A stretch of 64,000 nucleotides of DNA. Origin: Cladocopium goreaui. Its lineage: Eukaryota; Sar; Dinophyceae; Suessiales; Symbiodiniaceae. Below are positions 28,757 through 64,000 of this stretch, one piece after another. The DNA lies in the NCBI GenBank assembly GCA_947184155.2, contig CAMXCT020000457.1, forward strand, positions 124,001-188,000. The letters are read 5' to 3'. The notes under the pieces were generated by a model, which saw nothing but the letters and a program-made list of their open reading frames with translations, was not told the DNA's origin and did no database searches. The stretch's first letter is position 1, and each line of letters opens with the position of its first letter. A program made the translations under genes and the position numbers.

Positions 28757-29119
28757 TTATTCCCTTTACAAAACCACCCAAGTGTGAACCAGGGAACGCA
28801 GAACCAGAAGCTGGCAATGTCAAAAGACATATACTCTGACTCCACGTAAAGTAATATTAAACCAACCCTTCATATCAACATATATATATACATATCTATA
28901 GTACATCATACGCAACGTCGGGAAATGCGCCAATGAAAACCAACGTGCAAAAAAATCCGACATGTGAGGTTTCCAAAAAATCCAAGTGCAAAACTGACAT
29001 GTGAAATTCTGAATCAACTGCAACTCAGTGAATGGTGGCCGCTCTTTCTTTTTCTGCAAGGGGGTCTATTCAAGCTCCAACCGGAATGATGGGATGCAAC
29101 ATCGAGCACCCGCCATCAC
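28757..29119 (-). repeat. Split direct repeat B1
   Basis: A 363-bp copy of B2. The stop codon of the pol ORF (29116-29118) lies inside its first bases in element orientation, so coding ends exactly where the repeat begins. Confidence 0.9.
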
Positions 29120-32328: not shown

Positions 32329-32367
32329 ATTGTGATGTGAAACTGTCTCCGATTGATTCGCCTTTTG

Positions 32368-33729: not shown

Positions 33730-34281
33730 GTTTATGTGTTTGGCGTTTCCGTTCCATTTTGTGCATGTTTACAAAACAATAGGCTCAACTATCAAATAGT
33801 TGACCCAATTCTTTTGGGTGTATTGACATCTCTGAAGTCTAACTGTCTTGACTGAGACTGGAGCCAAAGACCCACTTGAATGAATTTTCCACCGCAACCC
33901 CACAGGCTCGGATTCAATGGATCTCTGGCAGCACAATGTTGGGTTACCACACATTGCCCATATTTCTCCAAAATGACTCAAGAATTTTACTGACCATGTT
34001 GGGGGGGAACCACCCATGGTCACGTGTGCAACCTTCCTGCCAAACTGGATCACCACGTTTGCAAAAGGTTTCAAACTTAAAAATTTTCGGGTTGAGATCA
34101 ACTGACTCAGCACTGTTGCAACCACCCGTGAATACGCTGGAACAACAAATGACCGGTTGGAAAAATCTCAAACCACCCCGGTCGAAATGTTGACTGGTGA
34201 CATCTATTCAAAAGAGATTTCACACCGACTCAACATGCACCTACATTTTGCTCCATCGTTCGGCAAAAATCTCGTATGCTT
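33730..34281 (-). other. Interval between YR and gag ORFs
   Basis: About 550 bp inside the young YR element. A minus frame (34125-33769) is open but has no recognised motif. It may be an untranslated leader for the gag/pol message. Confidence 0.4.
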
Positions 34282-36296
34282 TTAAGCCATCCTGTGCCTT
34301 CGGCAAACATGGCAAACGGCTGAATCATATCTAAGTTGTGCAGGCTCTGAAAAGTTCTTGTCCAACACCCGGCCACAACAAGTCCCATGTGGATACTTCG
34401 CATCAACAAGGTGAAGAGTCTTGGTCCTCTTATTCTGCATGAAGTGGAAACCTAAAGGTGCCGATGGTGGATAAAACATCCTGACAGGTGCATTGTATTC
34501 CACGCTCTCAGCTTCACTGTCTGAAGAAGAACTTGTAAAATGATCTTCCTCTAATTCTATCTGTCCATCTTCAACTGTTTGCACGGCATTGTCCAGCGCC
34601 TCATCCACTTGGGCGTCCAATGCAGCACTCTCGACATCACTCTCAAGAAATGAGACTGCACCAACATCCAATGAAGGGTCTGGCGCATAGTTCTTGTTGA
34701 ACCTCCCAGCCCTCGTTGTGTCAGGATCAAAATATCCTGCCCTAATTTCCAGCAAAAGTTTATCAATCAAACGGATTGTCCTTGCTTGTGCGTCCCTGGC
34801 ATAGGTGTCAGCCATCCTAAAAGGATGTGCATGGTGCCCCATGGCCAACCTGTCCTCGTGTTTCAACCCCGCTTTGCCGCCATCGAAAGAATGGTTGCTT
34901 TGAGTGAATGTGATGAGATCTGCCGTGTGCTTTCACTACGTTTAACGTTTTCACCCAGCATCAGTCTCAGCCATACACTTGCCTCATTACTCTCCAAGGC
35001 CCGTTGAAGAGTTGTACCATCTTCAGCTGGCGCTGGCATCAAAGTCTTGCCGGGCTCATTCGAAAAAGGATCAACACCAATATTCTTGAGTGCATCTATC
35101 CAACCCCTCACCCAATCATCTCCAAAAATTCCACTGCCAGACGCGACCAAATCCAAAAACTTGAACTTGTTTGCAGTTGCTTGCATGGTCTTATGGATTT
35201 GCACCTCCATGTCCACGTAGGCCACTTTGCCGGAAGATTCCAGCACATCAACTCTGATGCAATTACCGTGAATGAAATCACTCCATCTTGCACGTGCGTA
35301 AATGCAGAAAAGAGCAGCCCCACTGAACACTCTGTCCCAAGCATCCCCATTATCCAAACATGTATGCAAATGCCAAATGTCTGCAACTGTCAAGGGTGAA
35401 GCTTGATTCAACTTGTTTGCAAAATCACTCCCAGTGGCTCCCAAACAACGCTTGCTGACCGTGATCGGGTGGAGGTCGCTGATGTCAAAGGAGTACCTGC
35501 AAAAGGTAACAGCTTCAAGAATGGACTTCAATCGGCTAGTGCGGTTGCCAGTTGAATGCAAGGTCTTAATGATCCTGTACATTTCTGGTTCTTCAAGGGG
35601 CCAAAAGAATCCCAACTGTTGTAGGGTGGTATGCAAAAACACCATACTGTTTGCACGTTTCAACAGGGTTGCCGGCGCTTTCCCTGTCAGGTAGTCTCCA
35701 AGCAAGTTCATTGAATCATTCACTGTCGGACATGCCAAAAGTTCTTGTTTGCATTTCCACTCATCTGGCCAATTTCTGACAATAGTGTCCCATTTCATGA
35801 GAGCTCTTTGCAACTCAGCTTCTCGCTTCTCTGTCCAAACCTGGTCTTTCCTTCTGGAAACTGCCACCATGAACAAAGGCTTTGTGAAATCAGAACTGGA
35901 AACATCTGGTTGTGAAACTAAATTGTCAGAAGGTTTATCGTGAATCAGCTTCGGCACTTTGAGCTTGGGCTCAAACTGAGGTACAAGCGCATCCAAGGAA
36001 TCGTGGTTAGGGTCAAAAATGCAGGCCCACTCATCTGACTCCCATGGCAGTTGTACTGGTGATTCAGCAACGTTACGCATGGCATGTGCAAGCAAAGACT
36101 CAAAATTAAAAGTGCTCGGCTGTCCAGCTTCATGTGAGGGTGCACCAACGGCGACTTCAGGTCCAGACTGTTGAGGCCCAGGCAGCAGTGCTGTGTCTAG
36201 ATCCAAGCCAGTCTCTTCTTCAGCTACTGTCTGTAACGCATCATCTGAACCAATTAAGTTGTTATGATCAGAGTCATCCAAATAAAATGAATCCAT
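34282..36296 (-). CDS. Tyrosine recombinase of the young YR element, one frameshift
   Basis: The first frame (open from 36365; first likely Met at 36296, MDSFYLDDSDHN) runs to a TGA at 34863. It holds the N-terminal domain and catalytic Arg (IYARARWSDF, R360 counted from 36365) and the H-x-x-K motif SSHSLKATILSMAAKRG (H486, K489). The rest of the recombinase continues without a gap in an overlapping frame from 34866: KHEDRLAMGHHAHPFRM with the box II His, then ADTYARDAQARTIRLID with the probable nucleophile Tyr22 of that frame, and a tail ending in paired Cys (CHVCRRHRMA). A one-base shift at CGGGGTTGAAA splits the active site, so it is either a recent inactivating indel or a programmed shift. 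It lies first in the element, upstream of gag, which is unusual. Confidence 0.8.
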
Positions 36297-36331
36297 CTCC
36301 GCACCACGACAACATTGCAACACCCCCCAGC

Positions 36332-36630
36332 TAGAACGCTTGAACCGCAGGACTGACATATACACAGATATTAGACCTACCCAGAGGAGTTCAGAACGGA
36401 GTTTCAGATTTCTCAGTGATTTGTTTCAACAAGTTTAACAAAACCTTGACAACCTGAGAAAGGAAAAACGGAAACCACCAACTCTGGAAAAACAGCAGTT
36501 GTGGGAAATCAAATTTCGATTTGAAACAGTTGAGTTTTGGTTCACACTTGTTGGGTTTCTTTTGCCTCACAAAACAGGCAAAAGATTTTGTTGCAGGGAA
36601 TAATGTTATCATCCTTGCAGGAGCGCTAAC
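36332..36630 (-). repeat. Split direct repeat A1
   Basis: The 5' terminal repeat of the young YR element, identical to A2 except for about two bases. In element orientation it starts GTTAGCGCTCCTGCAAGG. Confidence 0.9.
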
Positions 36631-37245
36631 GAAAAACTTTGTGCAAGCTTTGTCGTACAACGTAGTACTGGGAACTGACTTTGTGCAAGCTTTGTAGTAC
36701 ACAGTAGTACTGGGAAGTAGTTTTGTGCAAACTTTGTGTAAAAGTAAGGCGTGCACAGTGTAAAGTGTTGAGAGGGGAGTGTAGGGTGTGTAAAGCGTAG
36801 ATTGTGGAGTGTTGAGTGTAAACTGTAGAGTGTAAAGTGTAGAGTGTGGAGTGTGGTGTGTAGTGTGTGGAGTGAGGAGTGAGGAGTGTGGAGTGTAAAG
36901 TGTAGAGTGTGGAGTGTGGAGTGTAGAGTGTGGAGTGTGGAGTGTAGTGTGTGGAGTGTGGAGTGAGGAGTGAGGAGTGAGGAGTGTGGAGTGAGGAGTG
37001 TAAAGTGTAAAGCGTGGAGTGTAAAGTGTAGAGAATGGAGTGTGGAGTGTGGAGTGTGGAGTGTAAAGTGTGGAGTGTGGAGTGCGGAGTGTCAAGTAAG
37101 GAGTGTCAAGTAAGGAGTGTGGAGTGTGGAGTGAGGAGTGTGGTGGGTGTAGAGTGTAGAGCGTGGTGGAGTGTGGAGTGTGGAGTGTAGAGTGTACTAC
37201 ACAAACCACACTTCCCACTCCACACTTCACACTCCACACTAACGC
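36631..37245. repeat. 60-bp duplicate and GTGTAGAGTGTGGA minisatellite
   Basis: Two copies of a unit with CTTTGTGCAAGCTTTGT and AGTAGTACTGGGAA lie at 36637-36730. They are followed by about 450 bp of GAGTGTGGAGTGTAGA variants at 36760-37195. This is the flank of the YR element. The Thr/Pro/His/Leu minus frame through it is an artefact. Confidence 0.9.
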
Positions 37246-37552
37246 TTGTGTCTCAGAGAACGCTACTGGGTTCACTGAAACACGTCTCAGCCACGCAAAC
37301 CTGACAGCAATCGTTCTCAAAAGCTGTAAGGAGGTGTCGGCGGTCTTTCGTTCCTTTTGATTCCAGCGGGTTTTTGCGCGGCCACCCAGCAGGTCATCGT
37401 GGCATGTGTTTCTCAGCCACTTTCATAGCGAGTAACAGAAGAGAGTGTAATGATTATGTGATACAATGTCATACGATGCAATGCTCAAACGTTCAACCCG
37501 GCCCCTTCCTACCTAGACCAAGACCTTGCCGTTGAACGATGCTCTATGATGC
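37246..37552. other. No gene recognised
   Basis: Unique flanking sequence between the minisatellite and the duplicated block, with no supported feature. Confidence 0.5.
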
Positions 37553-46114: not shown

Positions 46115-47458
46115 TCAAAAATATTGTGCTTGATGGACAACACACGCAATACATGAATTTGATGTCGTCAAAAAAAGATTGAAGACAAACTTACCCAAGT
46201 CCAAGAATAAGGTTTTCAAGGCTACTTGACAGTAGGACATGCTCCAAGCTTTGATCGAATTCACCACCGTCCTGTCCATGCGATAGCGCAAAAGCCCAAA
46301 ACTCACAGATGGCCAAAAATCGCTGATGCATTTTCCCATTTCGTGGAACATGACGAAGAAAGCCAATGCTCGTTGCAATGAAGCGATTCTGCCCTCATAC
46401 AACAACATCGAAAGGTTCTGAGTCTTGGCGAGCTTGAAAGCTTGCTCTGGTGAGCTCGAATGGCTCAGAAGGTGGTCCCCAAAAATATCTTCTAAAGACT
46501 CAGGAATGGACCAGCACTTTTCGAAACTCTCAGTGGAACCTGTGAGTTTGGCTTTGGCATATGACAACAATGTCACCGAATCAGCTGCATAGATCGATCT
46601 GCATTCTCTTCGAGTCAAAGCTCCATCACAATCGGCATCAAAACGATCAAAGACCGCTTTGAGTTCTTTCCTTGTGAGTGCCAAATCCTTCGGCCCCACC
46701 GAAGCAAAGCCCTTTTCAAATTCTGTGAAAACCACATTTCCATCTTCATTTGCTTTCAAAAGCGGGACCGCGCGGTCAATTTCCAAGCGAGCCTGACGCT
46801 TCTCTTCCTTTGCCTTCTTTTGCTCCATCATGCGGTCCCACAAGTGTTGTGAGTGTTGTGGCTCTTTGCCTGACAACTGGGCAAAACTACCCATCAGCGC
46901 TGCAGCGCTCTTGCCATTTTCCAATTTTTTCTTCTCACCCGTCTCACCCGTCCTTCCCTCTTCTCGATCCAAAAGATGCTCGCAAAGGTATTTTGGTCGG
47001 CTGTCTTTGAGGCATACATGGTGAGCTGTGAGCGGTAGCTTGTAAGGGTTGTGTCCAATGGTCAAGCTTTCACAAGTCTCTCCCATTGACTGGATGGAAC
47101 TTGCCTGATTCACTGCTAGGCACACAGATTGCTCTCCGCTCGTCAAAGCCATCAATCGGCCGTCTGGCCGGCCACAAGCCAGCAGGGTGCCCCTCACAAC
47201 CCGGTGAGTCATTCTGTGTACCAAGTGATCAGCAGGGTTGGCGGAGAAAACGGTGAGGCTGGTTGCTGAATAGGAACAAGCGACCAGCTTTGAAAGGAAG
47301 GCCTCCACACATTGTGCCACCCAGGGAATATCTCCAATGACAACTGTGCGGGCGGTCATCCGGTGAAGCAACGGACGTCGCTGCAGAACTCGGATCAACA
47401 GCATCATCAGCTGCGGCAAAAAAATGAAGACCGCAGCATCGAAAGCTCGTGCCACCAT
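46115..47458 (-). CDS. EF-hand protein exon, host gene
   Basis: A 447-codon minus-strand ORF with natural composition and no sign of element origin. Residues about 205-235 are basic and helical (QKKAKEEKRQARLEIDRAV). They are followed by an EF-hand pair: a degenerate loop KANEDGNVVFTE and a canonical loop DADCDGALTRRE (D-x-D-x-D-G...E), so calcium binding is likely at the second. The N-terminal part has RTVVIGDIPWVAQCVEAF and RLMALTSGEQSVCLAVNQA, which I cannot place; a ligand-gated transport or channel regulatory domain is only a guess. The ends are probably exon borders: the last about 25 residues look intronic. It is one of the few stretches in the window that looks like an expressed host gene. 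Confidence 0.6.
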   Translation of the reverse strand: MVARAFDAAVFIFLPQLMMLLIRVLQRRPLLHRMTARTVVIGDIPWVAQCVEAFLSKLVACSYSATSLTVFSANPADHLVHRMTHRVVRGTLLACGRPDGRLMALTSGEQSVCLAVNQASSIQSMGETCESLTIGHNPYKLPLTAHHVCLKDSRPKYLCEHLLDREEGRTGETGEKKKLENGKSAAALMGSFAQLSGKEPQHSQHLWDRMMEQKKAKEEKRQARLEIDRAVPLLKANEDGNVVFTEFEKGFASVGPKDLALTRKELKAVFDRFDADCDGALTRRECRSIYAADSVTLLSYAKAKLTGSTESFEKCWSIPESLEDIFGDHLLSHSSSPEQAFKLAKTQNLSMLLYEGRIASLQRALAFFVMFHEMGKCISDFWPSVSFGLLRYRMDRTVVNSIKAWSMSYCQVALKTLFLDLGKFVFNLFLTTSNSCIACVVHQAQYF

Positions 47459-52975: not shown

Positions 52976-53006
<31 letters not shown>

Positions 53007-53568
53007 CTGTCTATCTATCTATCTATCTCTCTATCTCTCTATCTCTCTATCTCTCTATCTCTCTATCTCTCTATCTCTCTATCTATCTATCTATCTATTT
53101 ATTTATCTATCCATCTATCCATTCATCCTATCTAAACCATTCTTTCTATCTGATCTATCTGTCTATCTCTATATCTACCTCTTCTATCTATCTATCCATC
53201 CATCCATCTATCTATCGACCTGTCTGTCTGTCTGTCTATCTGTCTGTCTGTCTGTCTGTCTGTGTCTGGGTGTGTTTCTGTGTGTGTGTGTGTGCCTATG
53301 TGTGTGCCTATGTGTGTGCCTATGTGTGTGCCTATGTGTGTGCCTATGTGTGTGCCTATGTGTGTGCCTGTGTGTGTGTGCCTGTGTGTGTGTGCCTGTG
53401 TGTGTGTGCCTGTGTGTGTGTGTGTGCCTGTGTGTGTGTGTGTGCCTGTGCCTGTGCCTGTGCCTGTGGGTGTGCCTGTGCCTGTGCCTGTGGGTGTGCC
53501 TGTGCCTGTGCCTGTGCCTGTGGGTGTGCCTGTGCCTGTGCCTGTGCCTGTGGGTGTGTGTGTGTGTT
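52881..53568. repeat. (CTAT)n/(CTGT)n and (GTGTGCCTATGT)n array at the LINE 3' end
   Basis: (CTAT)n with CTCTCTAT and CTGT variants runs from 52890 to 53260. It then shifts to GTGTGTGCCTAT, GTGTGTGTGCCT and GTGCCTGTGCCT units up to 53560. In minus orientation this (ACACAGGC)n field follows the A-tract that ends the non-LTR element, so it may have grown from the element's CA-rich tail. Confidence 0.9.
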
Positions 53569-54563
53569 TTTTTTCCCACGCTTCTTTCTATGTAGAATCC
53601 GCGCGCGCCTGCAGCATAGAAACGGTTGTTCTAGCTGGTTCTCTCAGTGGAGAAGCTTGGTGAGCCTTGTGCAGCTACTGGCGGCATGCAAAAAGTGGCA
53701 AAAATTTGCATGCCCCGATGGTGCTGAGTACTAGCAGCTGCTGCCATATTGGCAGTGTTAGAAATGGTGAAACGACAGGGACTTATGGAGAAACAACAGA
53801 ATGTGTGTTTTTTTTTTTTGGGGTGCCCTGTGCTGGGGTACACTCTGGGGTTGCCAGAGGGCCTGGAAAACAGGGGGATAAACCGGATGGGCACCGGGTG
53901 CACTGCAGCAGGTTGTGGCAATTGAGGATTGGTATCGGATAGTCACATGGCCTCGGCACAAACGTCAGTGGATAGCCAAAATGGCTTGCAAATTGGGAAG
54001 TATCGCCGGCTAGGCTTGGCAAAATGCCTTCTGGGTGAGAGTATCGCCAAAATGGCGTTGCAGCTGGTGTGCCCAGCAATGATTCTGGTGCCACTGGACT
54101 GCTCCCTAAACGAGTCAGCCACTTTGGGCGCATTGTGAAACGGACCTAATTTTTTTTTTTCTGGTCTTCGTGACACCTTGGGCTAAGCCTCTTGGACCAG
54201 TCTTTTTTTTTTTTTGGACTGGGGTCCACCTGAGGGTTTCTCAGGCCTGGGGGATAAGCCTGCCTGGGGGCAGGGTGCCTGAAAAATGCACAGGAACTTC
54301 AAGGGTCCCATGCCATACAAGGTCGAAGGCGCCGGCTAGGCATGGAGCAAAATGCATGGATAGGGTGCACCAAAATGGCATCTGTTTCGAGGTCACCTGC
54401 TAGGCAATGGCAAAGTGCCGGAGTGATACAGGCTTGGCAACCAGGTTGGGTACCTTGTGAGCACACCTCAGCCTGTAGACTTCTTTGTCGCTGACTGGGC
54501 TGACCCTGTATCATAAATCCTAAGCAATCACCATAGCAAAAACCGGTGATGCATCATTTTTTT
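53569..54563 (-). other. 3' region of non-LTR copy 1
   Basis: Non-coding. It contains two related modules, each ending (minus strand) in an A-tract: at about 54204-54216 and about 53809-53820, plus A-tracts at 54151-54160 and directly after the ORF stop (TTTTAAAAAAAAA). The modules share GGGGTACACTCTGGGG-like sequence and GCCAAAATGGC palindromes with the 3' region of copy 2. Confidence 0.6.
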
Positions 54564-57500
54564 TTAAAACGTGGTGCTGGTCAGCAAGTGCAGCAACGTG
54601 TTGTCTGGCGTGGTGGCATTGGGTGGCTGGTGCCAGTCATGCAACTCGATGAGATCCGTGCGGCACAGCCAAACACATGTGACCCCAGCCATGAATCCCT
54701 CTGGGATATACGTGCAGGGCTTGGGCTTCCTGCAGTCATCGCAGTCCAGCCAGTATGCTGTAGCATCAAGGCCAACATGACCTGGCTCAGTGCGCAAGAG
54801 CGCGCGATAGTGGCCAGCATTTGACTCACCATAGTGTGCAAAGGCCGCAACCGCCTGGTAGGCCTCCCATCTGCATTCCAGTGTGTTGCCTTGGAACACT
54901 GGTACCTGAATGTTTCCTGTGAAAATGATGGGGGTCTGCATCTTGTAAAGTGCACCTTTGGATGTTTGCACCATCCTTTCCAAGTGAACACAAAAGACCT
55001 CTGGAGGGCGCAGCAGTCCTGCACTCATGCCAAGCCCCCCGTGCCAGCTCCTCAGCATGTCAGTCAGACGGATCATACCATTGGTGACGTGTGTTGGCTC
55101 AAGTTGCAGAAACAGTGGTTGATGTCTGTCTCCGTGGTCATGAATCAGCACATTTTCACACTGCATCCATCGTCTGTGCCAATAGCTGCAATAAAACGCA
55201 GGTGACACCCATTGAACCAGCATTTGTGTGAACTCGGCAGAGTCCGCCTGACCATGATTGTCATCCCAATGAAGTGTGAGGTCTTCATACCATGTCTGAC
55301 TGTCTATGGAATAGGGTTCAGGCGAACTCAACATTTCACGAAACAAAGAGGCTGGTATTCCCCAATCAGCGTAGCTGAAGTGCGATCGCGACAGACTGGC
55401 CCAAAGAAAGCAAGACACCGCAGCATTGGCATAGCAAAGGTGACTGGAGTTGTCCAGGACAAGATTGGTCAGGGCAGCACGCAGAGCGTTGCGTGCCTGT
55501 CTGCTCAAGTACTCTTCTTCTTGCCCTTCCCCTGGCCCTTGCCTTTCGGGCCCATCAACAATTGCTCCAGCATCTGGGTCGGTCTGCTCGTCGCCTGTGA
55601 GTGCTGTTTGAGTGAGGCTCCGACCAGCGTCCACAGCGTTGACTGCGTCATGCCCATCAGGGTGTTCCACATTTCGGTTTCTCTGAGGCTCACCTCGATC
55701 ATCCAAGGCACCACCGTGGTCTGCGGCTTCAGGCTGTGAAAGCGCATGACCTGCCCCTCCTCCTGCAGCAGCTCCGTGAGCAGCTGAACTTCTTTGAGAG
55801 TCCTGGCCATCCCCATGGGTTTGCGATGAGATCGGATCAGCTTCTTCTCCTTGTGACACCAATGTTGATACGGCCAAGAGCCGTCCGCCAGGATCACTCC
55901 CTCTTGGACGGCCGTGTCCCAAATTGGATTGCCCTGTGAGCTCTGTGAAAGCTTCACCAGTCTCGTCTGCAGCTCCAGGATGACGCTCCTCAACAGGAAG
56001 GTCCTCAGGGTCAATGGATTGGCCTGGTCGGTGCTCTTCTGCGTCTTCCAAGCTAGGGCCTGTTGTGTCAGCACCCCCAGAGCGCTGCCGGGATTGGTTT
56101 GGACGAACAAAACGAAGCAGGTCTGTCTGTGTTGCATCTGGATGGCCTTGTCGTGCTGGATGATGACCTGTGCCATGAGTTTCACCATGCCCAGTAGTGC
56201 TTTCTGCGTTGGGCCCTGATCGTCCTCCTGCTTCACCATGGCAGGTCGGTGTTTTTTGGGATTGGGTTCGTCGTCGTTTGAGCGGTGGTACTGACTGGCC
56301 TGCAGCAGCAGGGGTCCCAGCGCCGCAAACGAGTTCAGCAGCTCCGTATCTGCTTGATCCATCATGGGCTGATCTGCCATTGATCGGTAGGAGCAGAAAG
56401 GCAATTTGGTGAAGCACTGGGCAGCACGCTGTAAAATGTGCTTGGACCATGGCAGTGCGGTCAGCAGTCTCATCCCCAGTGGAGTGTTCAGTATTGAAAA
56501 TCAATGCACAAAACCTACACTGAAAATCATTCGATTGTTCACGGAGAAAGCATTGCACAAGTTGAAATTTGATCTGAGCCGCCCACTGGCTGTCGTCATG
56601 ATGTTGTGCCACCAGGTGCATCGTCAGTGCTGCTGGATGAAATTGTATTCCACAAAGCACGCAACGTTGTCTGAGCAATTGCAACAGCGTGGGAGCATGC
56701 CATAGATGGCTGTAATCTCTGTCCACCAGCACATTGAGCATCATGTCCACATGTGGGTTGGGCAGCAGGTGTCTGTAGGCCATGCGCAGGTCAGCGTCAC
56801 TGAAATGCCAGGGGATCAGGAGGTCTTGCTCACTGGTCAGGAAAATCATGGACAGCTGTCTGATCACATTACAAATGTGGGTGCGGCTCACATCATGGGT
56901 GGAAGGGTTGCAAAGGCAGCCCACATATGGAGTCAACGTCTGCAAGAGGAAGCGGACCATTTCACCTGACTGAGCCCAGAGCTGTGCGTGCGTCTGTTGT
57001 AGATGCGCGCTTAAGTCATTGCTTCTTGAGTACGCCTCCCCGCAGAACTGGCAATGTAGCGTCAACTGAAGCCTCTGTTGTGCTGGCAAGCCGGTGGTCG
57101 AAATGGCGCCCGACTGGAGATTCAGGGCCCATTTGGCTGCTGCATTCAGTGGCGTGTTGGACGCCATCGGCTCAAAGAACGGGCAGCGCCCGTCAGTTAT
57201 GTGACGACGCAGTCCTGCACGTGTGGCATATATTTGGCCACAGTGACTACATCCATTGCTCTCCGGGAGAGAGTCCCTGGCAGCGTTCCAGTCGTGGATT
57301 TGAACTTCATGGTCAGAACTGAGGTGAGCATGTAATTGGGCTGTTGTTTCGAACTCCATGGCACAAATATCACAGCATAACTGGTTGCAGGTGAGGTCCA
57401 GGCAATGCAGAGCCAGAGCCGCCAGTTGAGTGGCCACTTTGCACATGTGCCCTCGCTTGAAGGGTGTCTTGCAAAGCACGCATGGACTAGTGCTTGGCAT

Positions 57501-60500
57501 CAGCTTCGTGATCTGCGCTGACTTGGTAAAAATACCCTGCGTCAGGTCCGGGTGATGAAGTCGGTAGTGGCCATTCATTTCTTGGCAGCGATTGTTCCAA
57601 ATGCCGCACACCATACATGAGTGTGTAAGGTACTGACTTGCATCTGGAAGCTCAGCAACTTCCTGCCACGCCTGTCGCTGGATCTTGTCCTTGAGCTCCG
57701 TCCAGAACGGCTGTATGGTGACATGGTAGTTGGATGACTCAGCCTGTGAGCTACCACTGGCCTGGTTGGTCGACCGGGGCTGTGTCAATCTCGTCGGTTG
57801 GGGTGCCTGACAACAATTGCGTTCGACATGAATTTGAAATCGTCTCCATGTGGTGAAATGTTTATGACAATGAATACATTGTGGACGTCCATTCAGGGAC
57901 ATGTCCAAGATGGTGTGATTGTATGTGCGATGTTGAGATGTACCGTGAACAGTTGTACTGTGTCTTCGCAAGTTGGGAATTGAGTGAGTGACAAAGGTGC
58001 ATTGCTGGCATTTGTAGCGTACCTGCATCTGCTGGCAATCATCGTCCCCAGCGCCAATGGGCACCTCCGGAAAGCTGGTTGCAATGGTTTGTATCAAATG
58101 CAGTGTATCTTGCAAATGGGACCAATCAACACAATGGAGAAAATCATCGGGTGCCAACCATTGCTGCCTCTGTTGAAGCCGATGCCATAGGCTCTGAGCT
58201 AGCTGAAAGAGGATGTCCATTGGCTGGGCATGATCATATGTGAGAAGGACCTGCTGATGACTGTGACCTGTCACGTATGCATGATCACCAATGATTTTGC
58301 GCAACATTTGATAAACTGTGAGCTGATAGGCCTGCAAAGTCTGTAAAGTAAATGAAGTTGCAAACAATCCATAAGTCAGTATGGTGTTGATGCATGTTCT
58401 CCACAAATACAGTCTGTGTTGTAACCGAAATTGTCGGTGTCGAAGCCATTGAGCCAGTCTAGCAAAAGCACTCCATGCAGCTCTTCGACGGTGGTTCCAT
58501 GTCTGCAGTTCAATGGCGTGGTATGACATCACGGTGCCAAGGTAAACCCCATGACTGCGCAAGGGTAGTTCTGTTTTGCTGCCATCGCGCCGTGGAAACA
58601 AGGCAAAGGTCTCGCGGTTGGTTCGCTTGAAACGGCTTTTCATAGCCCCGCGTTGGTTGCTCCCTGTTGTGGCCAAAATGACATAGGATTTCTGGTAAGA
58701 GAGCTGAAGTTGTAAGTCTTCAATACAATCCAGCAAATGTCCAATATTGGTCATGTGTCGATCCAACTGCCCTGGGGTGTGGAAGCAGCAACCAACATGC
58801 AGATCGTCCGCATACAATGTCAGACAATTTCGAATCCAGTCTTCCCCAGTCAGGGGTACCAAAAGATCAAGCAGCCGGTGCATAAATACCACCCACAATA
58901 TGGGAGCAATTTTGCAGCCTTGTCGAAGGCCAATGCCTGCTGATATGTGAGTAGTGTCATTTTGAAACATTAAATTGTATTGTGTGTTTTCATGCCAATG
59001 GGTGATGATAGTAAGTAGGTCAGATGGGATTTGTAATTTGTGGAGATGTTCAATTAACGTGGCTCTGTGGACTCGGTCAAAAGCTTTTGTCAGGTCCAGA
59101 AACAGCTGTAGGCCGCCCATGAGGGTGGCAGTAGGAGGAGATCTCATTTGGGCTGCAACTGTCCTCCGATGGTTTTTCACCAGCTCCCTGATCAAAGCGC
59201 AATGCCTGGAGACCCTACAGATCGCATCTGTTGCGGCTCGCATTGGCAGGAAGCCAAAATGGGGACCCTGACACAGGGTCCGTGTCAAATGCCGCTTCAG
59301 GCAGTCTGTGACCAGACCCATCACTAGTTTTCCGAGGGTTTCCATGAGAGAAATTGGTCTCAATTGTTCTGGTCGATTACAGGCCTTACCAGGTTTGGGG
59401 ATGAAGTATACCCACGAGTCTTTCCATTCTTGCGGGATGATTGGGGGATAAACATTCCACCAGTGGGTTAATAGTTGATGCAAATAAGTGGCCACCAACT
59501 GAGGGTTTCCCTTCCACACAATAGCGGGCAAGAAAGGCATGGCAACTGACTTGTTTGGATGCAGTCTGGTAACAGCTCTGGCAATGTCATCTACCGTGAA
59601 CGGTACCCCAGGGGGGTGTTCAGAAAAATGTGGCAGTGTGCAAGGGCCTTGCCAGGTGCTGCGAACATAATCAGCCAGCAGTGCATGGGTTTCAAACTGG
59701 TCAGCAATGTTGCCATCCTTTGTACGGAGTCTGAGTTTCATCATAGGTTTGCGAGGCGAGAACTTATTAATGATGGAAAACATCTGTTGTGCATCATGTT
59801 TGTCTGCAGCCCTACTGACCTGATCGCAGAGCTCGGCAAATCGGCGTGATCTGGCCAGGCGGGCACGCTTCTGTTGCGTCCGTCGCAATAATGAAAATCT
59901 GCTCCAATGCTGCCACACTTGCCAAATGCATTTGAGCGTGATGTGTGTGGTTTGACAGGCGTGCCTCAGAAATTGATGATGTCTCCACTTTTCCTGTATC
60001 GCAGTGTGAAAGTCCGTATAGTCAACTTTGGGTAATTGATTTCTGGATCCATGAAAAAGTTCTTGAAATTTGGGAATAAGTTGTTGATGAATGAGTTTGA
60101 TGTCAGTATGGTCATGTGTGGTGTCCTGCTGTCTGACGGTGATCACCTCGCGTAGGTGCTCTTGGAGTTGATGCCAATGGCTGGTATCCTGCAATTGTGC
60201 TTGTCGGCATTGGATCCTTTGTGCAAAATTGCAGGCTCTGACAGTACGGTCTTGATGATACGCCATGTGGATCTTTCGGATTGTACCTAAAATTGGGACA
60301 TGGTGTGTCTGGTTTAAGGGTACAAAAGGAGCATGATATAGGTGTTGGACATGTTTGGATTGGCCATCGCATGCATTCAAACGGGTAATCAGGAAATCAA
60401 TGCGAGATGCATACATGCCATGCTGATAGGTGTATCCTGCATCGTGCCATGTATTCAGTGCAACCAGTCCTTGAGATTTCAAGAGGTCCTTGAACATGTG

Positions 60501-61568
60501 CATATCCTGGTGTTGGGCTCCACGATCTTGTTGGGCACGCCATTTGAAAGTGTCTGGTCCACACCACGGTTCAGCTCGCGGCAAGGAACAATTAAAATCA
60601 CCTCCACAGATGAGTTGATTGCGATTTGGCAAACGGCTGATGTGTTCTGTCAATTGACTCCAAATCTGTCGTCGATGCCTAGCTGAGTCTGGGGTGCGGT
60701 AGTCAGTGAACTGATATACCGCCATCACATCTGTGGCCCGTTTTGCAAAATGCAAGCGAATGTGTAAAATCCGTCCAGGGTGCACCATGGTGTAGCCTAT
60801 GTTGTCGGAGGCACACCACCGTTGGGCTATCATAACCAGAAGCCCTCCTGACTTGGTTTGTTCTGAAGGGCTGTGCACGTACGACCAGTCCTTATCATTC
60901 CAACAGGCCTCAAAACCCCAGCGTGTCTCTGAGATGATCACCAAATCAACTGGTTGGCGGTGCAGCCAATGCTTGAGCTCCTGAAAGGTGCTTTGGCTCA
61001 TGCCACCCGGGTTCCAATGGAGTATCCGAATTCTTGGCTTTGGCTTGTTGGAGTGCAGCATCATATTGGGGATAGGTCGGTGCCCCTCTGTCTGCTGTAC
61101 TGATTGCACCAGTCCGGAAGGAAAATCTGAAGGTCGCATGCATTGTCCTTTGTACCATGTTTGTCCTGTCAGAACAGCTCGACGGCAAGCTCGTTTGTAG
61201 CTGCGTTTCTGTACTGCAGTATATTGCTGCTTAAAAGGCTGCTGATTCGGGCCGTGGCCCACTGTTGGCGGTGTTCCACTGTTTTTCGCCCATTGTTGAA
61301 AGAATTTTGTCCAATCTGGCGCTCTCGCCATGTCCGTGGCAACATGGCAACCCTCACCCTCATGATCACCGTGTCGTCTGAAAAAGCTGGTGATTGTAGA
61401 CTGTATGGGTTGACTACAGTTGATGTCCTTCTCGGTGATCATGCCCGGCATTGGGACCGGGTTGCAGATAGCGATAACCAGAATTCCGTAGAGAGATCTC
61501 CAAATAAATGGCAGAGACATATGCGAAAACTGGTTGTAAAAACACACAGCAGGACACTGGTACCACAC
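54564..61568 (-). CDS. Non-LTR polyprotein: endonuclease, RT, zinc fingers, USP protease
   Basis: 2334 codons; the likely start is Met43 at 61442 (MITEKDINCSQP). AP-like endonuclease at about 180-430: HWNPGG (N186), SETRWG (E214), GGDFN (D324), RIDFLI (D391), HHVP (H423). RT at about 720-1000: FIPKPGK, LDLTKAFD (D825), GLRQGCKIAP, LYADD (919-922). About seven C2H2-type fingers at about 1186-1730 (for example YKCQQCTF...H, QCIHCHKHF...H, LHCQFCGEAY...H). Residues 2035-2300 are a USP-type deubiquitinase: NSSHLCYANA (Cys2045), HGQADSAEF (2071-2079), NAGHYRALL (His2253), WLDCDD (Asp2275/2277). Residues about 1730-2022 are low-complexity and overlap a better-looking frame, so this stretch may not be the translated one. 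Predicted role: target-primed reverse transcription by EN/RT, nucleic-acid binding by the fingers, and removal of ubiquitin-like tags by the C-terminus. I know of no standard LINE family with this domain set. Confidence 0.85.
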   Translation of the reverse strand: MWYQCPAVCFYNQFSHMSLPFIWRSLYGILVIAICNPVPMPGMITEKDINCSQPIQSTITSFFRRHGDHEGEGCHVATDMARAPDWTKFFQQWAKNSGTPPTVGHGPNQQPFKQQYTAVQKRSYKRACRRAVLTGQTWYKGQCMRPSDFPSGLVQSVQQTEGHRPIPNMMLHSNKPKPRIRILHWNPGGMSQSTFQELKHWLHRQPVDLVIISETRWGFEACWNDKDWSYVHSPSEQTKSGGLLVMIAQRWCASDNIGYTMVHPGRILHIRLHFAKRATDVMAVYQFTDYRTPDSARHRRQIWSQLTEHISRLPNRNQLICGGDFNCSLPRAEPWCGPDTFKWRAQQDRGAQHQDMHMFKDLLKSQGLVALNTWHDAGYTYQHGMYASRIDFLITRLNACDGQSKHVQHLYHAPFVPLNQTHHVPILGTIRKIHMAYHQDRTVRACNFAQRIQCRQAQLQDTSHWHQLQEHLREVITVRQQDTTHDHTDIKLIHQQLIPKFQELFHGSRNQLPKVDYTDFHTAIQEKWRHHQFLRHACQTTHITLKCIWQVWQHWSRFSLLRRTQQKRARLARSRRFAELCDQVSRAADKHDAQQMFSIINKFSPRKPMMKLRLRTKDGNIADQFETHALLADYVRSTWQGPCTLPHFSEHPPGVPFTVDDIARAVTRLHPNKSVAMPFLPAIVWKGNPQLVATYLHQLLTHWWNVYPPIIPQEWKDSWVYFIPKPGKACNRPEQLRPISLMETLGKLVMGLVTDCLKRHLTRTLCQGPHFGFLPMRAATDAICRVSRHCALIRELVKNHRRTVAAQMRSPPTATLMGGLQLFLDLTKAFDRVHRATLIEHLHKLQIPSDLLTIITHWHENTQYNLMFQNDTTHISAGIGLRQGCKIAPILWVVFMHRLLDLLVPLTGEDWIRNCLTLYADDLHVGCCFHTPGQLDRHMTNIGHLLDCIEDLQLQLSYQKSYVILATTGSNQRGAMKSRFKRTNRETFALFPRRDGSKTELPLRSHGVYLGTVMSYHAIELQTWNHRRRAAWSAFARLAQWLRHRQFRLQHRLYLWRTCINTILTYGLFATSFTLQTLQAYQLTVYQMLRKIIGDHAYVTGHSHQQVLLTYDHAQPMDILFQLAQSLWHRLQQRQQWLAPDDFLHCVDWSHLQDTLHLIQTIATSFPEVPIGAGDDDCQQMQVRYKCQQCTFVTHSIPNLRRHSTTVHGTSQHRTYNHTILDMSLNGRPQCIHCHKHFTTWRRFQIHVERNCCQAPQPTRLTQPRSTNQASGSSQAESSNYHVTIQPFWTELKDKIQRQAWQEVAELPDASQYLTHSCMVCGIWNNRCQEMNGHYRLHHPDLTQGIFTKSAQITKLMPSTSPCVLCKTPFKRGHMCKVATQLAALALHCLDLTCNQLCCDICAMEFETTAQLHAHLSSDHEVQIHDWNAARDSLPESNGCSHCGQIYATRAGLRRHITDGRCPFFEPMASNTPLNAAAKWALNLQSGAISTTGLPAQQRLQLTLHCQFCGEAYSRSNDLSAHLQQTHAQLWAQSGEMVRFLLQTLTPYVGCLCNPSTHDVSRTHICNVIRQLSMIFLTSEQDLLIPWHFSDADLRMAYRHLLPNPHVDMMLNVLVDRDYSHLWHAPTLLQLLRQRCVLCGIQFHPAALTMHLVAQHHDDSQWAAQIKFQLVQCFLREQSNDFQCRFCALIFNTEHSTGDETADRTAMVQAHFTACCPVLHQIAFLLLPINGRSAHDGSSRYGAAELVCGAGTPAAAGQSVPPLKRRRTQSQKTPTCHGEAGGRSGPNAESTTGHGETHGTGHHPARQGHPDATQTDLLRFVRPNQSRQRSGGADTTGPSLEDAEEHRPGQSIDPEDLPVEERHPGAADETGEAFTELTGQSNLGHGRPRGSDPGGRLLAVSTLVSQGEEADPISSQTHGDGQDSQRSSAAHGAAAGGGAGHALSQPEAADHGGALDDRGEPQRNRNVEHPDGHDAVNAVDAGRSLTQTALTGDEQTDPDAGAIVDGPERQGPGEGQEEEYLSRQARNALRAALTNLVLDNSSHLCYANAAVSCFLWASLSRSHFSYADWGIPASLFREMLSSPEPYSIDSQTWYEDLTLHWDDNHGQADSAEFTQMLVQWVSPAFYCSYWHRRWMQCENVLIHDHGDRHQPLFLQLEPTHVTNGMIRLTDMLRSWHGGLGMSAGLLRPPEVFCVHLERMVQTSKGALYKMQTPIIFTGNIQVPVFQGNTLECRWEAYQAVAAFAHYGESNAGHYRALLRTEPGHVGLDATAYWLDCDDCRKPKPCTYIPEGFMAGVTCVWLCRTDLIELHDWHQPPNATTPDNTLLHLLTSTTF
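55505..56380 (-). CDS. Nested overlapping ORF, basic KGKGKKK tail
   Basis: A 291-codon frame (ATG at 56380, MADQPMMDQADTELLNSF) lies entirely inside the large ORF, one base downstream in phase (+1). It reads as a normal protein: QKALLGMVKLMAQVIIQHD, FVLFVQTNPGSALGVLTQQ, LRTFLLRSVILELQTRLVK, DGSWPYQHWCHKEKKLI and QVMRFHSLKPQTTVVPWM. It ends MGPKGKGQGKGKKKST. I associate this fold-like segment with proteins repeated in dinoflagellate genomes. The large frame here is Gly/His/Gln/Asp-rich and looks like the shadow. The USP begins in the large frame just past this stop, so joining the two needs a -1 shift. It may be a gag-like nucleic-acid-binding protein (inference). Confidence 0.6.
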   Translation of the reverse strand: MADQPMMDQADTELLNSFAALGPLLLQASQYHRSNDDEPNPKKHRPAMVKQEDDQGPTQKALLGMVKLMAQVIIQHDKAIQMQHRQTCFVLFVQTNPGSALGVLTQQALAWKTQKSTDQANPLTLRTFLLRSVILELQTRLVKLSQSSQGNPIWDTAVQEGVILADGSWPYQHWCHKEKKLIRSHRKPMGMARTLKEVQLLTELLQEEGQVMRFHSLKPQTTVVPWMIEVSLRETEMWNTLMGMTQSTLWTLVGASLKQHSQATSRPTQMLEQLLMGPKGKGQGKGKKKST

Positions 61569-61915
61569 AAGGGATTGCTTTGTCCAGCAGGTGGGTACAG
61601 CAGTGTCAGGGTTGTCAGTTTAAGCCCAAATAAAGAAAAATCTGGTCGCTCAAGTGTCAATTGTACCGTGCAGCTGTTGAAATGGGACAGTCAGCTTGGA
61701 TGCCCAGTCCAATGGCAATATCAGGCCAGGGAAGATCACGGGGGCCCACCCCGGCGTGAAAATTGAACACTCGTCTGGACCAGTTAGCAAAGGCTGGATG
61801 TCCAATCCAATGGCAATGTCCGGAAAACCCTAAGTGCGGCCGGGCAATGGCTGCAGTATTCCGCTGTGGTTCCTCACCACTTGAGGCGGGTATCGCACCC
61901 GCAAAGGGCTTGTGT
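61569..61915 (-). other. 5' region of non-LTR copy 1
   Basis: It lies between the copy 2 3' end and the copy 1 ORF. It contains two partial tandem copies of a segment with GGATG(C/T)CCA(G/A)TCCAATGGCAAT (61697-61720 and about 61796-61820), perhaps a duplicated promoter or UTR module. No RNA gene was recognised. Confidence 0.45.
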
Positions 61916-61920
61916 GTGTG

Positions 61921-62907
61921 TGTTTTTTCTCTCCGCTCCTTTTCTGATTAGAATCTGGCGCTCACTTCAGCGATGGTGTATTGACCATGCTGGTTCTCTC
62001 ATTGGAGAAACTACAGGCGAGGATCCTTCCGCATCTCAGCTGACTGACATCAGTGGGGAAAAAATGTCAGCCCAGCCAGCTCCAACGGTGTTGTTCGGTT
62101 GGATCAAGTCGGCAGCATAGAGTTCAATCAGCCGCAGTCAGGGCAAGGAAAAATTGTCTGTAGTTTGGTGCAGGTGCACCGAAAAGGCTAGGCTCAGGAT
62201 GCAGGCAGCATCGGGCTTGAGGACATATGGTGGCACAGCTACTATTGATGGCATGTGAAACGTATGGGGGCATTATGGATTCGACCCCCTTTTTTTTTTC
62301 TTCGGAAGCAACAGAATGATGAATGTTTTTTTTTTTTTTGGACATCTTCTCGGGTCCTTCTGACTGGGGGTACACTCCGGGGTACGGAGGGCATGAAAAG
62401 GGTGACAACGGGGGTCAGGGGCATGGGTGGCACATATGCAGTTATGGTCGAAGCCAAGGAACTGAAAAAGAGATCACCAAGCGGAGTTACATTCAGAAGC
62501 GCCGACTAGGCAAGTGTCAGTGGCAAAATGCCAGCATGCATCTATCGAATAAGCAAAATGCCTCATGAATTCCAGTGGCCAAAATGGCCTGTCGAGTGCG
62601 GAGTCCCTCGATTTGAATCGCCGGCTAGGCATAGTGGAGAGGGCAAAATGCCCATGCAATGCCATACACGCAAGTGGATGGCAATGGCAAAATGTGTAAT
62701 ATTTTGGAAGTCTCTGCACTGCAACCTGTTATGAACGACCCTTTGATTGTGAAACGACAGTGAAACGGATCTATTCCGTTTTTTTTTGGACATCTTCTGG
62801 GGTCCTTTCCAACAGGGGTACGCTCTGGGCTGCAGAGGGCATGTAAAGGGTCATCCTGACCTGGGGGTCAGGGACATGGGTGCTTCCGGCAGGAAGCATG
62901 GCTTGGT
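61921..62907 (-). other. 3' region of non-LTR copy 2
   Basis: Non-coding. It has two modules, each ending in an A-tract on the minus strand (about 62322-62334 and 62779-62787). Each module contains a TTTTGGACATCTTCT(C/G)GGG block and GGGGTAC(A/G)CTC(C/T)GGG. Several CAAAATGGC or CAAAATGCC motifs are shared with the copy 1 3' region. Confidence 0.6.
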
Positions 62908-63993
62908 TTAGGTCGGCAAGCTATTGAGCATGGTCAGCATCGCATGGTGGTCGGATGCAATTGTGCCCAGTGTCGCGCCTGTCTCATGACTGGTGTCCTC
63001 CCGCATGTCGTGTAAGTCCAATGAATCACACTTGCATAACCAGAAACATGTGACGCCGGCAGCAAACTCTGGGGGCAGATACCAGCATGGTTGTGGTGGC
63101 CTGTTGTCATCGCAGTGAAGCCAAAGGGCTGGTTCCTGGTTTGCTCGTGCCTCATGTCTTGTTTTGAGAATGCACTGATAATGGCCAGCATCAGAAGATC
63201 CCAGATGGGCAGTGGCCGCTACAACCTGAAAACCTTCCCAACTGCATTCTGTGCTATCAGGACCATGAGCAAGAACAGGAAAAGGGATCCCCCAGTGAAA
63301 TCCAATGGGCGTGGATGATTTGGTCACTTGTCCTGTAGGCAACCTGAGAAAGCGGTCAACATGAATGCAAATGAGGTCAGCAGCGTCCATGAGGCCTGCA
63401 CTCATTCCAAGCTCATTGTGCCAGTTCCTGATCAGGTCAACAAGGCGTATGGTGCCATTGTCAGTGAGTTCAGGATCCAATGCGATGGTGATGGGCATGA
63501 ATTGGTCTCCCATGTCATGCACGGCAACTCTTTGTTCCTGAAATACCCTGCGTTCCCAGCGATTGGAGATGCTGGGGGATGCAACCCCTTTCAAAAGAAT
63601 GTTGGAAAACTCGGTGCTGTCTGCTTGGCCATGGCGTTCAGGCCAGGATTCAATGAGATTGTGAAACCATTGAAATTGCTCAAGCACAAGTGGTGTATCC
63701 TTTGGTTGTGATAGCATTTCTTGAAACAGCTCCGAGAATTCTCCCCAATCTGTCAGTTGGAATGTGGTCCTTGACAGAGTGGCCCACAAAAAGGCTAAAA
63801 CTGCACTATTGGCATAGCACCAATTTCCGCTATTTTCCATGGTGATGTCTCGGATGGCCTGTCGCAAAGCTTGTCGGACAGCTGCAGGATCTAGTGGTTC
63901 TTGTGCTTGCCCTGAGCTTTCCCCTTCCCCTTGCCCTTGGCTTGGTTGGGCTGCTGTTGAAGGCATTGCTGCAAGAGCTGGGCCTGCTTGCAT
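62908..63993 (-). CDS. USP-type deubiquitinase domain, copy 2 (partial ORF)
   Basis: A 361-codon frame open from the window edge. It has a canonical USP Cys box NSGNWCYANS (Cys59), HGQADSTEF (121-129) matching the Q-x-D-x-x-E-F motif, His box DAGHYQCIL (His271) and WLHCDD (Asp295/296). It aligns end to end with residues 2035-2334 of the copy 1 ORF (ADWG versus TDWG, GLGMSAGLL versus ELGMSAGLM, GVTCVWLC versus GVTCFWLC). Overall divergence is high but the catalytic residues are kept. The overlapping frame at the right edge ends in KGKGKGKAQGKHKNH, the counterpart of the KGKGQGKGKKKST tail in copy 1 and again -1 to the USP frame. The true N-terminus lies outside the window. Confidence 0.82.
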   Translation of the reverse strand: MQAGPALAAMPSTAAQPSQGQGEGESSGQAQEPLDPAAVRQALRQAIRDITMENSGNWCYANSAVLAFLWATLSRTTFQLTDWGEFSELFQEMLSQPKDTPLVLEQFQWFHNLIESWPERHGQADSTEFSNILLKGVASPSISNRWERRVFQEQRVAVHDMGDQFMPITIALDPELTDNGTIRLVDLIRNWHNELGMSAGLMDAADLICIHVDRFLRLPTGQVTKSSTPIGFHWGIPFPVLAHGPDSTECSWEGFQVVAATAHLGSSDAGHYQCILKTRHEARANQEPALWLHCDDNRPPQPCWYLPPEFAAGVTCFWLCKCDSLDLHDMREDTSHETGATLGTIASDHHAMLTMLNSLPT

Positions 63994-64000
63994 TGCCCCT

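What the first reader, a model, noticed from the sequence alone, without database searches (positions are those of the whole stretch)
54564..61568. Non-LTR retrotransposon ORF fused to a ubiquitin-specific protease
The sequence shows endonuclease, RT (LYADD), a zinc-finger array and a C-terminal domain with all USP hallmarks (N..LCYANA, GQADSAEF, GHY, WLDCDD) in one 2334-codon frame. Cysteine proteases of OTU or Ulp1 type are known in some retroelements. A USP-type domain with an intact Cys/His/Asp set on a LINE-like element is not a standard architecture I can name. It could protect element proteins from degradation or act on ubiquitinated chromatin.
Basis: partly seen in the sequence, partly recalled or inferred. 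Interest (0 to 1): 0.88.

Follow-up and report, generated by a model that had tools for sequence, protein, structure and literature searches.

The report
Deubiquitinase-bearing retrotransposon with a nested gene
A dinoflagellate genome carries a large family of jumping genes whose main protein ends in a ubiquitin-removing enzyme, and inside the same stretch of DNA a second conserved protein appears to be written in a shifted reading frame.

Summary
ORF 54564-61568(-) encodes an APE-type endonuclease, reverse transcriptase, about ten C2H2-type fingers and a C-terminal ubiquitin-specific protease (USP, PF00443) in one frame. It belongs to a multicopy family: of 81 scored genome hits of its RT, 69 have a listed USP hit 1.5-4.5 kb downstream. 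In 20 long copies PF00443 matches all, and the catalytic Cys, His and one Asp are invariant. The genome is dinoflagellate (172 exact spliced-leader motifs, 0 in the control). Copies sit between (CA)n plus a 5' hairpin and a 3' A-tract plus (CA)n, often head to tail, suggesting insertion at AC microsatellites.

Between fingers and USP, all 20 long copies carry a roughly 300-codon ORF (B) in the +1 frame, with an invariant ATG. Substitutions show that B is the amino-acid-selected frame there, yet the main frame has no stop across B in 30 of 30 copies with B in one frame (at most 6 of 1000 permutations). The main frame is therefore probably read through into the USP, so the fusion is real. B's expression and the USP's activity and substrate are inferred. 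Repbase and other dinoflagellates could not be checked.

The parts
53567..61910 (-). Whole element (copy 1): 5' AGCCCTTTGC-hairpin end after (CA)n, to the 3' A-tract before (CA)n
   Evidence: Boundary motifs shared with other copies; 3' end ...GCGTGGGAAAAAAAA(CA)n resembles that of 13 other copies
54564..61568 (-). Main ORF, EN-RT-C2H2-linker-USP (first ATG at 61520)
60381..60983 (-). APE-type endonuclease domain (residues 196-396)
   Evidence: PF03372 E 1.2e-4 here (below cut-off), matched in 16 of 20 copies; PDB profile match to LINE-1 ORF2p spans EN and RT
58674..59402 (-). Reverse transcriptase (residues 723-965, LYADD at 918)
   Evidence: PF00078 E 1.7e-21; 19 of 20 copies
56409..58010 (-). 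Array of about ten C2H2-type zinc-finger patterns (residues 1187-1720)
   Evidence: pattern scan; many Cys/His columns invariant or nearly so in 20 copies; Pfam matches weak
55505..56380 (-). Nested ORF B, 291 codons plus stop, +1 frame relative to the main ORF; ATG in context ATCAATGG, Lys/Gly-rich tail
54633..55493 (-). USP (C19-type) domain
   Evidence: PF00443; PDB USP matches
55434..55436 (-). Catalytic Cys codon (C2045)
   Evidence: invariant in 20 copies
54810..54812 (-). Catalytic His codon (H2253)
   Evidence: invariant in 20 copies
54735..54740 (-). Acidic pair D2277-D2278 of the third catalytic position; D2278 is invariant, position 2277 is D, N, Q or E
61886..61902 (-). 5'-end hairpin GCGGG-TGCGATA-CCCGC
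   Evidence: 5-bp stem in 16 of 17 leaders with compensatory changes
61911..61922 (-). (CA)n junction between the 3' end of copy 2 and the 5' end of copy 1
61923..63999 (-). 3' part of a second, diverged element (copy 2), with USP ORF 62908-63999 running off the window
   Evidence: L009: end of ZF, B and USP matched, EN/RT not matched

Best explanation
This is one copy of a family of APE-type non-LTR retrotransposons in a dinoflagellate genome that inserts at AC microsatellites. One long ORF is translated as a fusion protein: endonuclease to nick the target, reverse transcriptase for target-primed reverse transcription, a C2H2 array to bind target DNA or element RNA, and a USP that removes ubiquitin (or a ubiquitin-like modifier) from the element's own protein/RNP or from proteins at the insertion site. 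Inside the linker before the USP lies a second gene, B, in the +1 frame: a conserved protein of about 300 residues, basic, with its own ATG and a Lys/Gly tail, most likely a nucleic-acid-binding partner doing the job of the missing ORF1 protein, made from its own (probably spliced-leader trans-spliced) mRNA. Shown here: the architecture, copy number, conserved catalytic residues, selection on B, a main frame kept stop-free across B, and shared element ends. Inferred: insertion mechanism and mobility, USP activity and substrate, role and expression of B.
For: Domains: (PF00443 in 20 of 20, RVT_1 in 19 of 20, Exo_endo_phos in 16 of 20 long copies). Genome-wide linkage: 69 of 81 RT hits with a listed USP hit downstream, 38 in one unbroken ORF; the USP lies in a frame of at least 1000 aa in 83 of 128 scored hits and at least 2000 aa in 49. 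Invariant C2045, Q2107, D2109, E2112, H2253, D2278 in 20 copies. B: Met start in 20 of 20 rows, K/G tail in 19 of 20. Of 128 USP hits, 95 have a listed B hit just upstream; 85 of the 95 have offset +1, and in 83 of those 85 the USP frame is at least 600 aa. Zero main-frame stops across B in 30 of 30 copies with B in a single frame, against means of 4.7-9.7 with B's amino acids kept; in five stretches of the window copy before B, the -1 frame has 9-14 stops per 290 codons. Substitutions in the overlap fall at B codon position 3, e.g. 16/11/73. Element ends. L011 and L014 are 96% identical over 9.2 kb but have different upstream neighbours. Dinoflagellate.
Against: No transcript, protein or activity data. 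Structure predictions failed. The window USP has no CxxC pair between its QQD-like and His boxes (one search lists only CDDC at 2276 and CVWLC at 2298), and the first residue of its acidic pair varies between copies. No target-site duplications were defined, because the flanks are microsatellite. In 10 of 95 pairs the B/USP offset is not +1; 4 of those 10 were fetched and are frameshifted in B or USP, 6 were not looked at. 6 of 16 regions have a frameshifted B and were left out of the 30; in those the USP frame holds 7, 0, 2, 0, 0 and 4 stops over the B span. 12 of 81 RT hits had no listed USP hit (not examined; the lists are truncated). Six of the 20 long copies show no 3' A-(CA)n tract within the 355-467 bases of flank fetched. 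L011 has upstream of it a 470-nt stretch identical to its own 3' end, which looks like tandem duplication rather than insertion.
Confidence: 0.75

Rival explanations
1. The USP is a neighbouring host gene or an assembly join, not part of the element.
For: This genome has tandem USP genes elsewhere (e.g. contigs C3806 and C3549; eight such loci, L001-L008, do not match any part of the element by tblastn).
Against: A USP hit sits downstream of 69 of 81 RT hits, inside shared element ends, in copies whose main ORFs are as little as 26% identical to the window's. The main frame is stop-free through B.
Confidence: 0.03
2. The frame switch in the linker is decay: two compensating indels in this copy.
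For: The codon-preference switch at both edges of the linker looked like that at first.
Against: The same layout is in all 20 long copies and in 85 of 95 genome-wide pairs; the ATG and tail of B are conserved.
Confidence: 0.02
3. B is reached by programmed +1 frameshifting from the main ORF (EN-RT-ZF-B), or the USP is also reached by -1 frameshifting or stop-restart from B, instead of B having its own mRNA.
For: B's stop lies just before the USP and in some copies overlaps a main-frame ATG or a GTG followed by ATG (read).
Against: Met start in all 20 rows, with a B-frame stop within about 2-7 codons upstream in several copies; no shared slippery site was seen by eye in the two window copies. 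If the USP were reached only from B, the main frame need not stay open over 300 codons.
Confidence: 0.25
4. The copies are a domesticated, tandemly duplicated host gene family rather than a mobile element.
For: Copies often lie head to tail (18 same-strand USP neighbours within 15 kb among 128 hits). The 470 nt upstream of L011 are identical to its own 3' end, as after a tandem duplication.
Against: In the other six tandem pairs compared, the neighbouring USPs are only 24-44% identical (L010 31%, L014 42%, L019 25%, L024 24%, L027 33% over 73 residues; window copies 44%). Near-identical copies lie on different contigs, and L011 and L014 have different upstream neighbours. That fits repeated insertion into the same microsatellite better than gene duplication. 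Odds raised by 0.02.
Confidence: 0.14
5. The USP acts in cis as the polyprotein's processing protease.
For: The fusion is long, and proteases elsewhere can process polyproteins (general knowledge).
Against: USPs are known to act on folded ubiquitin-like substrates (general knowledge); none of the ten Pfam families matched in the 20 copies is ubiquitin-like. No cleavage site was sought.
Confidence: 0.15

Closest known systems
LINE-1-type / APE non-LTR retrotransposons
   Same: EN then RT order; the profile of the 20 copies matches human LINE-1 ORF2p over EN and RT (E 4e-28)
   Different: About ten C2H2-type fingers, a C-terminal USP and a nested +1 ORF; in 14 of 16 leaders read, no ATG ORF of 80 codons or more other than the main one was found
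NeSL and Utopia non-LTR elements (Ulp1-like protease)
   Same: Non-LTR element with a cysteine protease of a deconjugase family (passages of PMC4640811)
   Different: There the protease is N-terminal and Ulp1-like, with a C-terminal restriction-like endonuclease; here it is C-terminal, USP type, with an APE endonuclease
Helinoto, a Helitron2 with deubiquitinase-like domains
   Same: Mobile element carrying deubiquitinase-like domains (title seen in the reference list of PMC7599744)
   Different: DNA transposon; the domain type was not read here
Microsatellite-targeted non-LTR elements
   Same: Insertion in microsatellites is known for non-LTR elements (abstract of PMC4640811, seen; names such as Mino and Waldo are recalled, not from a call)
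   Different: The abstract speaks of elements with restriction-like endonucleases; the APE examples I recall are animal R1-clade elements. No clade test was run here
Host USPs (USP30, USP21, USP28, USP2)
   Same: Cys, QQD-like and His boxes, acidic third residue
   Different: No CxxC pair between the QQD-like and His boxes of the window copy; fused to RT

Membership tests
USP / peptidase C19 | Profile match over the curated cut-off | tested here: met
   30.6 bits vs 23.9 in the window copy; UCH in 20 of 20 long copies at E<=0.01
USP / peptidase C19 | Cys box with oxyanion Asn at Cys-5, QQD-like box, His box, acidic residue | tested here: met
   C2045, Q2107, D2109, H2253, D2278 invariant; N2040 in at least 90% of 20 copies
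USP / peptidase C19 | USP fold | tested here: inconclusive
   two models with mean pLDDT 32.5 and 34.4
USP / peptidase C19 | Ubiquitin cleavage | not testable with these tools
   needs a biochemical assay
APE-type non-LTR retrotransposon | EN and RT domains in one ORF | tested here: met
   EN match of the window copy alone is below Pfam's cut-off
APE-type non-LTR retrotransposon | No long terminal repeats | tested here: met
   no long non-simple direct repeat found over 53000-64000 (largest such pair 73 nt, both copies outside the element). A pair of about 105 nt at 74.5% (53555-53657 and 61911-62012) does flank copy 1; I read it as the 3' ends of copies 1 and 2
APE-type non-LTR retrotransposon | Dispersed copies with shared 3' end and A-rich or repeat tail | tested here: met
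   A-tract plus (CA)n 131-218 nt after the stop in 13 of 20 long copies and at 992 nt in the window copy; not seen in 6 with short flanks
APE-type non-LTR retrotransposon | Target-site duplications | tested here: inconclusive
   flanks are (AC)n-rich, so duplications could not be told apart
NeSL / Utopia | Ulp1-like protease | tested here: not met
   no such Pfam family among the ten matched in 20 copies
NeSL / Utopia | C-terminal restriction-like endonuclease | not tested
   no specific search made; the C-terminus is a USP
Overlapping (overprinted) gene pair | Both frames open beyond chance in many copies | tested here: met
   main frame stop-free in 30 of 30 copies with B in one frame; B itself has an internal stop in one of them, L034
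Overlapping (overprinted) gene pair | Amino-acid selection in both frames | tested here: inconclusive
   clear for B; main frame shown only to be kept stop-free
Overlapping (overprinted) gene pair | Both products expressed | not testable with these tools
   no transcript or protein data held

The most novel reading that the evidence does not exclude
A eukaryotic retrotransposon lineage in which a whole essential second protein, replacing ORF1p, is overprinted inside the RT polyprotein gene and expressed by spliced-leader trans-splicing, while a true deubiquitinase fused to the RT shields the retrotransposition complex from host ubiquitination. This would be a direct ubiquitin arms race between a LINE and its host.
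Probability: 0.3. Interest if true: 0.9.

Novelty: new variant of a known kind. Interest (0 to 1): 0.78.

Why it matters
If the USP is active, it points to ubiquitination as a host restriction of retrotransposition in dinoflagellates, important enough that a LINE carries its own eraser. The nested B ORF is a roughly 300-codon overlap kept open in both frames across copies whose B proteins are only 21-63% identical to the window's, a kind of dual coding known mainly from viruses (recalled) and unusual in a LINE. It gives a concrete test of how SL trans-splicing might be used to express internal ORFs. Gene annotation in dinoflagellates could also be affected, since such ORFs may be called as host USP or RT genes.

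Tried and rejected
Structure prediction of the USP: two jobs, one with a single sequence and one with two sequences, both unusable. I spent both before the genome search worked, so no deeper alignment could be folded, and no fold search was run. Searches with the USP in GTDB genomes, IMG/VR and phage records, and with B in IMG/VR, found no relative. Rfam on the 5' end: nothing credible (one match, E 8.5). B against Pfam and PDB: nothing credible. A spliced-leader copy with up to 3 mismatches in the window: none. First idea, two compensating frameshifts in one copy: rejected by the other copies. dN/dS of the two window copies: dS saturated. Literature: seven answered searches; the papers listed (2 of 2, 2 of 2, 12 of 19, 20 of 25, 0, 10 of 63, 8 of 11) show by title and start of abstract none on a USP in a non-LTR element or on a nested ORF of this kind. 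That library is open-licence PMC only, and Repbase/Dfam could not be searched. Of papers I saw only search listings and passages found by term (PMC4640811, PMC6338049, PMC7599744, PMC12014239), no whole text.

Full report
OBSERVATION. The stated ORF exists: 2334 stop-free codons at 54564-61568 on the minus strand. Pfam finds RVT_1 (E 1.7e-21), UCH/USP (E 3.3e-7, above cut-off) and a sub-threshold Exo_endo_phos; C2H2-type patterns fill residues 1187-1720. At the window edge a second USP ORF (62908-63999) is 44% identical.

A FRAME PROBLEM. Codon preference follows the main frame up to about residue 1700, the +1 frame in the 80-codon windows starting at residues 1700 to 1900, and the main frame again after that. 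In the +1 frame an ORF (55505-56473, conserved from the ATG at 56380) reads like an ordinary protein, while the main frame reads as Gly/Arg/His/Pro-rich filler. I first took this for two compensating indels.

THE FAMILY. The genome holding the window (1.17 Gb, 6202 contigs) became searchable. PF00443 gave 134 matches (149 of 301 candidates scored), many in open frames of 1000-3020 aa; some belong to other USP genes. I fetched 20 regions of about 10 kb, 19 chosen for long open frames and one as the window's neighbour. 19 of the 20 carry the element; L026 does not. In all 20 long copies (window plus 19) the fingers are in frame f, B in f+1 and the USP back in f, with EN-RT upstream in frame f where present (L009 has no EN/RT match, L028 no EN match, L022 and L027 are interrupted upstream). 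Pfam over the 20 at E<=0.01: UCH 20, RVT_1 19, Exo_endo_phos 16. The profile of the 20 matches LINE-1 ORF2p (E 4e-28) and solved USPs (best USP30, E 1.6e-10).

To offset the bias of choosing long frames, I fetched 16 further 2.6-kb regions whose USP frames were 242-1458 aa. 16 of 16 have B and USP. In 10 of 16 B is in a single frame; in 6 it is frameshifted. Genome-wide hit coordinates for B (134 scored of 348 candidates) and USP (128 of 358) give 95 USP hits with a listed B hit just upstream; the other 33 USP hits have none listed. 85 of the 95 have offset +1, and in 83 of those the USP frame is at least 600 aa, long enough to run through B. Of the 10 exceptions, 4 were among the fetched regions and are frameshifted in B or USP; 6 were not looked at. 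Of 81 scored RT hits (of 777 candidates), 69 have a USP hit 1.5-4.5 kb downstream among the 128 plus one; 51 are in the same frame and 38 in the same unbroken ORF. Copy numbers are lower bounds, because only the best candidates are scored.

DUAL CODING. The start of B is the one alignment column that is Met in all 20 rows; the Lys/Gly tail is in 19 of 20 (not L019). With B's amino acids and codons kept but synonymous codons permuted, the main frame would hold 4.7-9.7 stops on average; the real copies hold 0 in 30 of 30 (20 long plus the 10 with B in one frame, of which L034 has an internal stop in B), and 0-6 of 1000 permutations per copy reach zero. The 6 frameshifted copies were left out; in them the USP frame holds 7, 0, 2, 0, 0 and 4 stops over the B span. 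The 30 are not independent: some are 95-99% identical. The third frame holds 10-26 stops. As a control, the -1 frame of five stretches of the window copy lying before B has 9-14 stops per 290 codons. In 14 pairs of copies compared, differences in the overlap concentrate at B's third codon position (L010/L035: 16, 11, 73; aa identity 0.92 for B, 0.72 for the main frame), except L011/L014 (6, 0, 6), which has few differences. In the USP they concentrate at the main frame's third position, except L032/L035 (1, 3, 2); for some pairs only 6-129 USP codons could be compared. So B is selected for its amino acids and the main frame for being open. The simplest reason to keep the main frame open is that the USP is translated as part of the RT fusion.

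USP. Across 20 copies Cys2045, Gln2107, Asp2109, Glu2112, His2253 and Asp2278 are invariant and Asn2040 is in at least 90%. The residue before Asp2278 is D, N, Q or E in different copies, so the second acid may be the working one. This recalls published work on USPs in which either acid can be critical (recalled, not from a call). The window copy has no CxxC pair between the QQD-like and His boxes. Catalysis is likely but untested.

ELEMENT ENDS. Copies begin after (CA)n with AGCCC(C) and a hairpin: 19 motif hits on the element strand and 0 on the other in the copies held. 16 of 17 leaders long enough to test form a 5-bp stem, with three pair types at each of positions 3 to 5; shuffled leaders form such a stem in 450 of 3400 trials, so the evidence is the covariation and the repeat of the position rather than the stem itself. 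Copies end in an A-tract plus (CA)n, 131-218 nt after the stop in 13 of 20 and 992 nt after it in the window copy; in six the flank fetched (355-467 nt) showed none. Several copies abut at (CA)n head to tail. In six tandem pairs the neighbouring USPs are only 24-44% identical, which suggests repeated insertion into AC microsatellites, including the tails of older copies. Against this, the 470 nt upstream of L011 are identical to its own 3' end, which looks like a tandem duplication. L011 and L014, 96% identical over 9.2 kb, have different upstream neighbours (L014's resembles L023 at 86%) and differ after their 3' (CA)n, though both continuations are simple repeats. L009 (copy 2) lacks a match to EN/RT, which may be 5' truncation.

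HOST. The recalled dinoflagellate spliced-leader sequence occurs 172 times exactly, its reversal 0 times, so this is a dinoflagellate genome.

MECHANISM. EN nicks, RT primes and the fingers bind: all by family analogy. USP: most likely protects the element's RNP or clears ubiquitin at the target (inference). B: net charge +7 to +12 with a basic tail; in 14 of 16 leaders read, no ATG ORF of 80 codons or more other than the main one was found (the exceptions L022 and L027 are the copies with an interrupted main ORF), so an ORF1p-like role is plausible. SL trans-splicing is the likeliest route to B's own mRNA, since dinoflagellate mRNAs receive a leader (passages of PMC12014239). Upstream CAG sites are visible in several copies but could be main-frame coding.

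KNOWN OR NEW. Protease-bearing non-LTR elements exist (Ulp1 in NeSL and Utopia, passages of PMC4640811), and a Helitron with deubiquitinase-like domains is cited. A paper on accessory retrotransposon domains has no occurrence of 'ubiquitin' in its text (term search in PMC6338049). I saw no report of a USP on a LINE or of a nested ORF like B in the listings, some of which were cut, and Repbase, Dfam and subscription papers were not searchable.

Noticed in passing
window 29116-37320 (-): Four long minus-strand frames (1070, 453, 500, 309 aa) in a row with no Pfam family except a sub-threshold RNase-H-like match (RVT_3, E 0.076); perhaps one large broken gene or another retroelement.
   Followed up: partly
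window 46115-47458 (-): 447-aa ORF with weak EF-hand matches.
   Followed up: no
window 53000-53590: Long simple-repeat tract (TCTA-, TCTG- and TG-type) directly beyond the 3' end of the element.
   Followed up: partly
window 53743-54379 and 62578: GCCATTTTGGC, part of the dinoflagellate spliced leader, occurs 11 times with up to one mismatch in the window (2.1 expected), four of them in the 3' UTR of copy 1; possibly spliced-leader relics or a shared UTR motif.
   Followed up: no
L001-L008 (contigs C1226, C3806, C2877, C3549, C4163): USP genes in 605-662 aa frames, several in tandem on one contig and with near-equal scores (E about 1e-31), without tblastn match to any part of the element.
   Followed up: no
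17 leaders in L010-L027 and the window, first 30 nt after (CA)n: Conserved 5' hairpin of the element with compensatory changes; function unknown, no credible Rfam match for the window copy.
   Followed up: partly
L011-L028, end of ORF B: B's TGA stop overlaps a main-frame NTG codon, in some copies ATG or GTG followed by ATG, just before the USP (read); could allow stop-restart translation of the USP.
   Followed up: partly
L011 1-470 (G000 contig C519): 470 nt upstream of this copy are identical to its own 3' end, as after a recent tandem duplication of about 9.3 kb.
   Followed up: no
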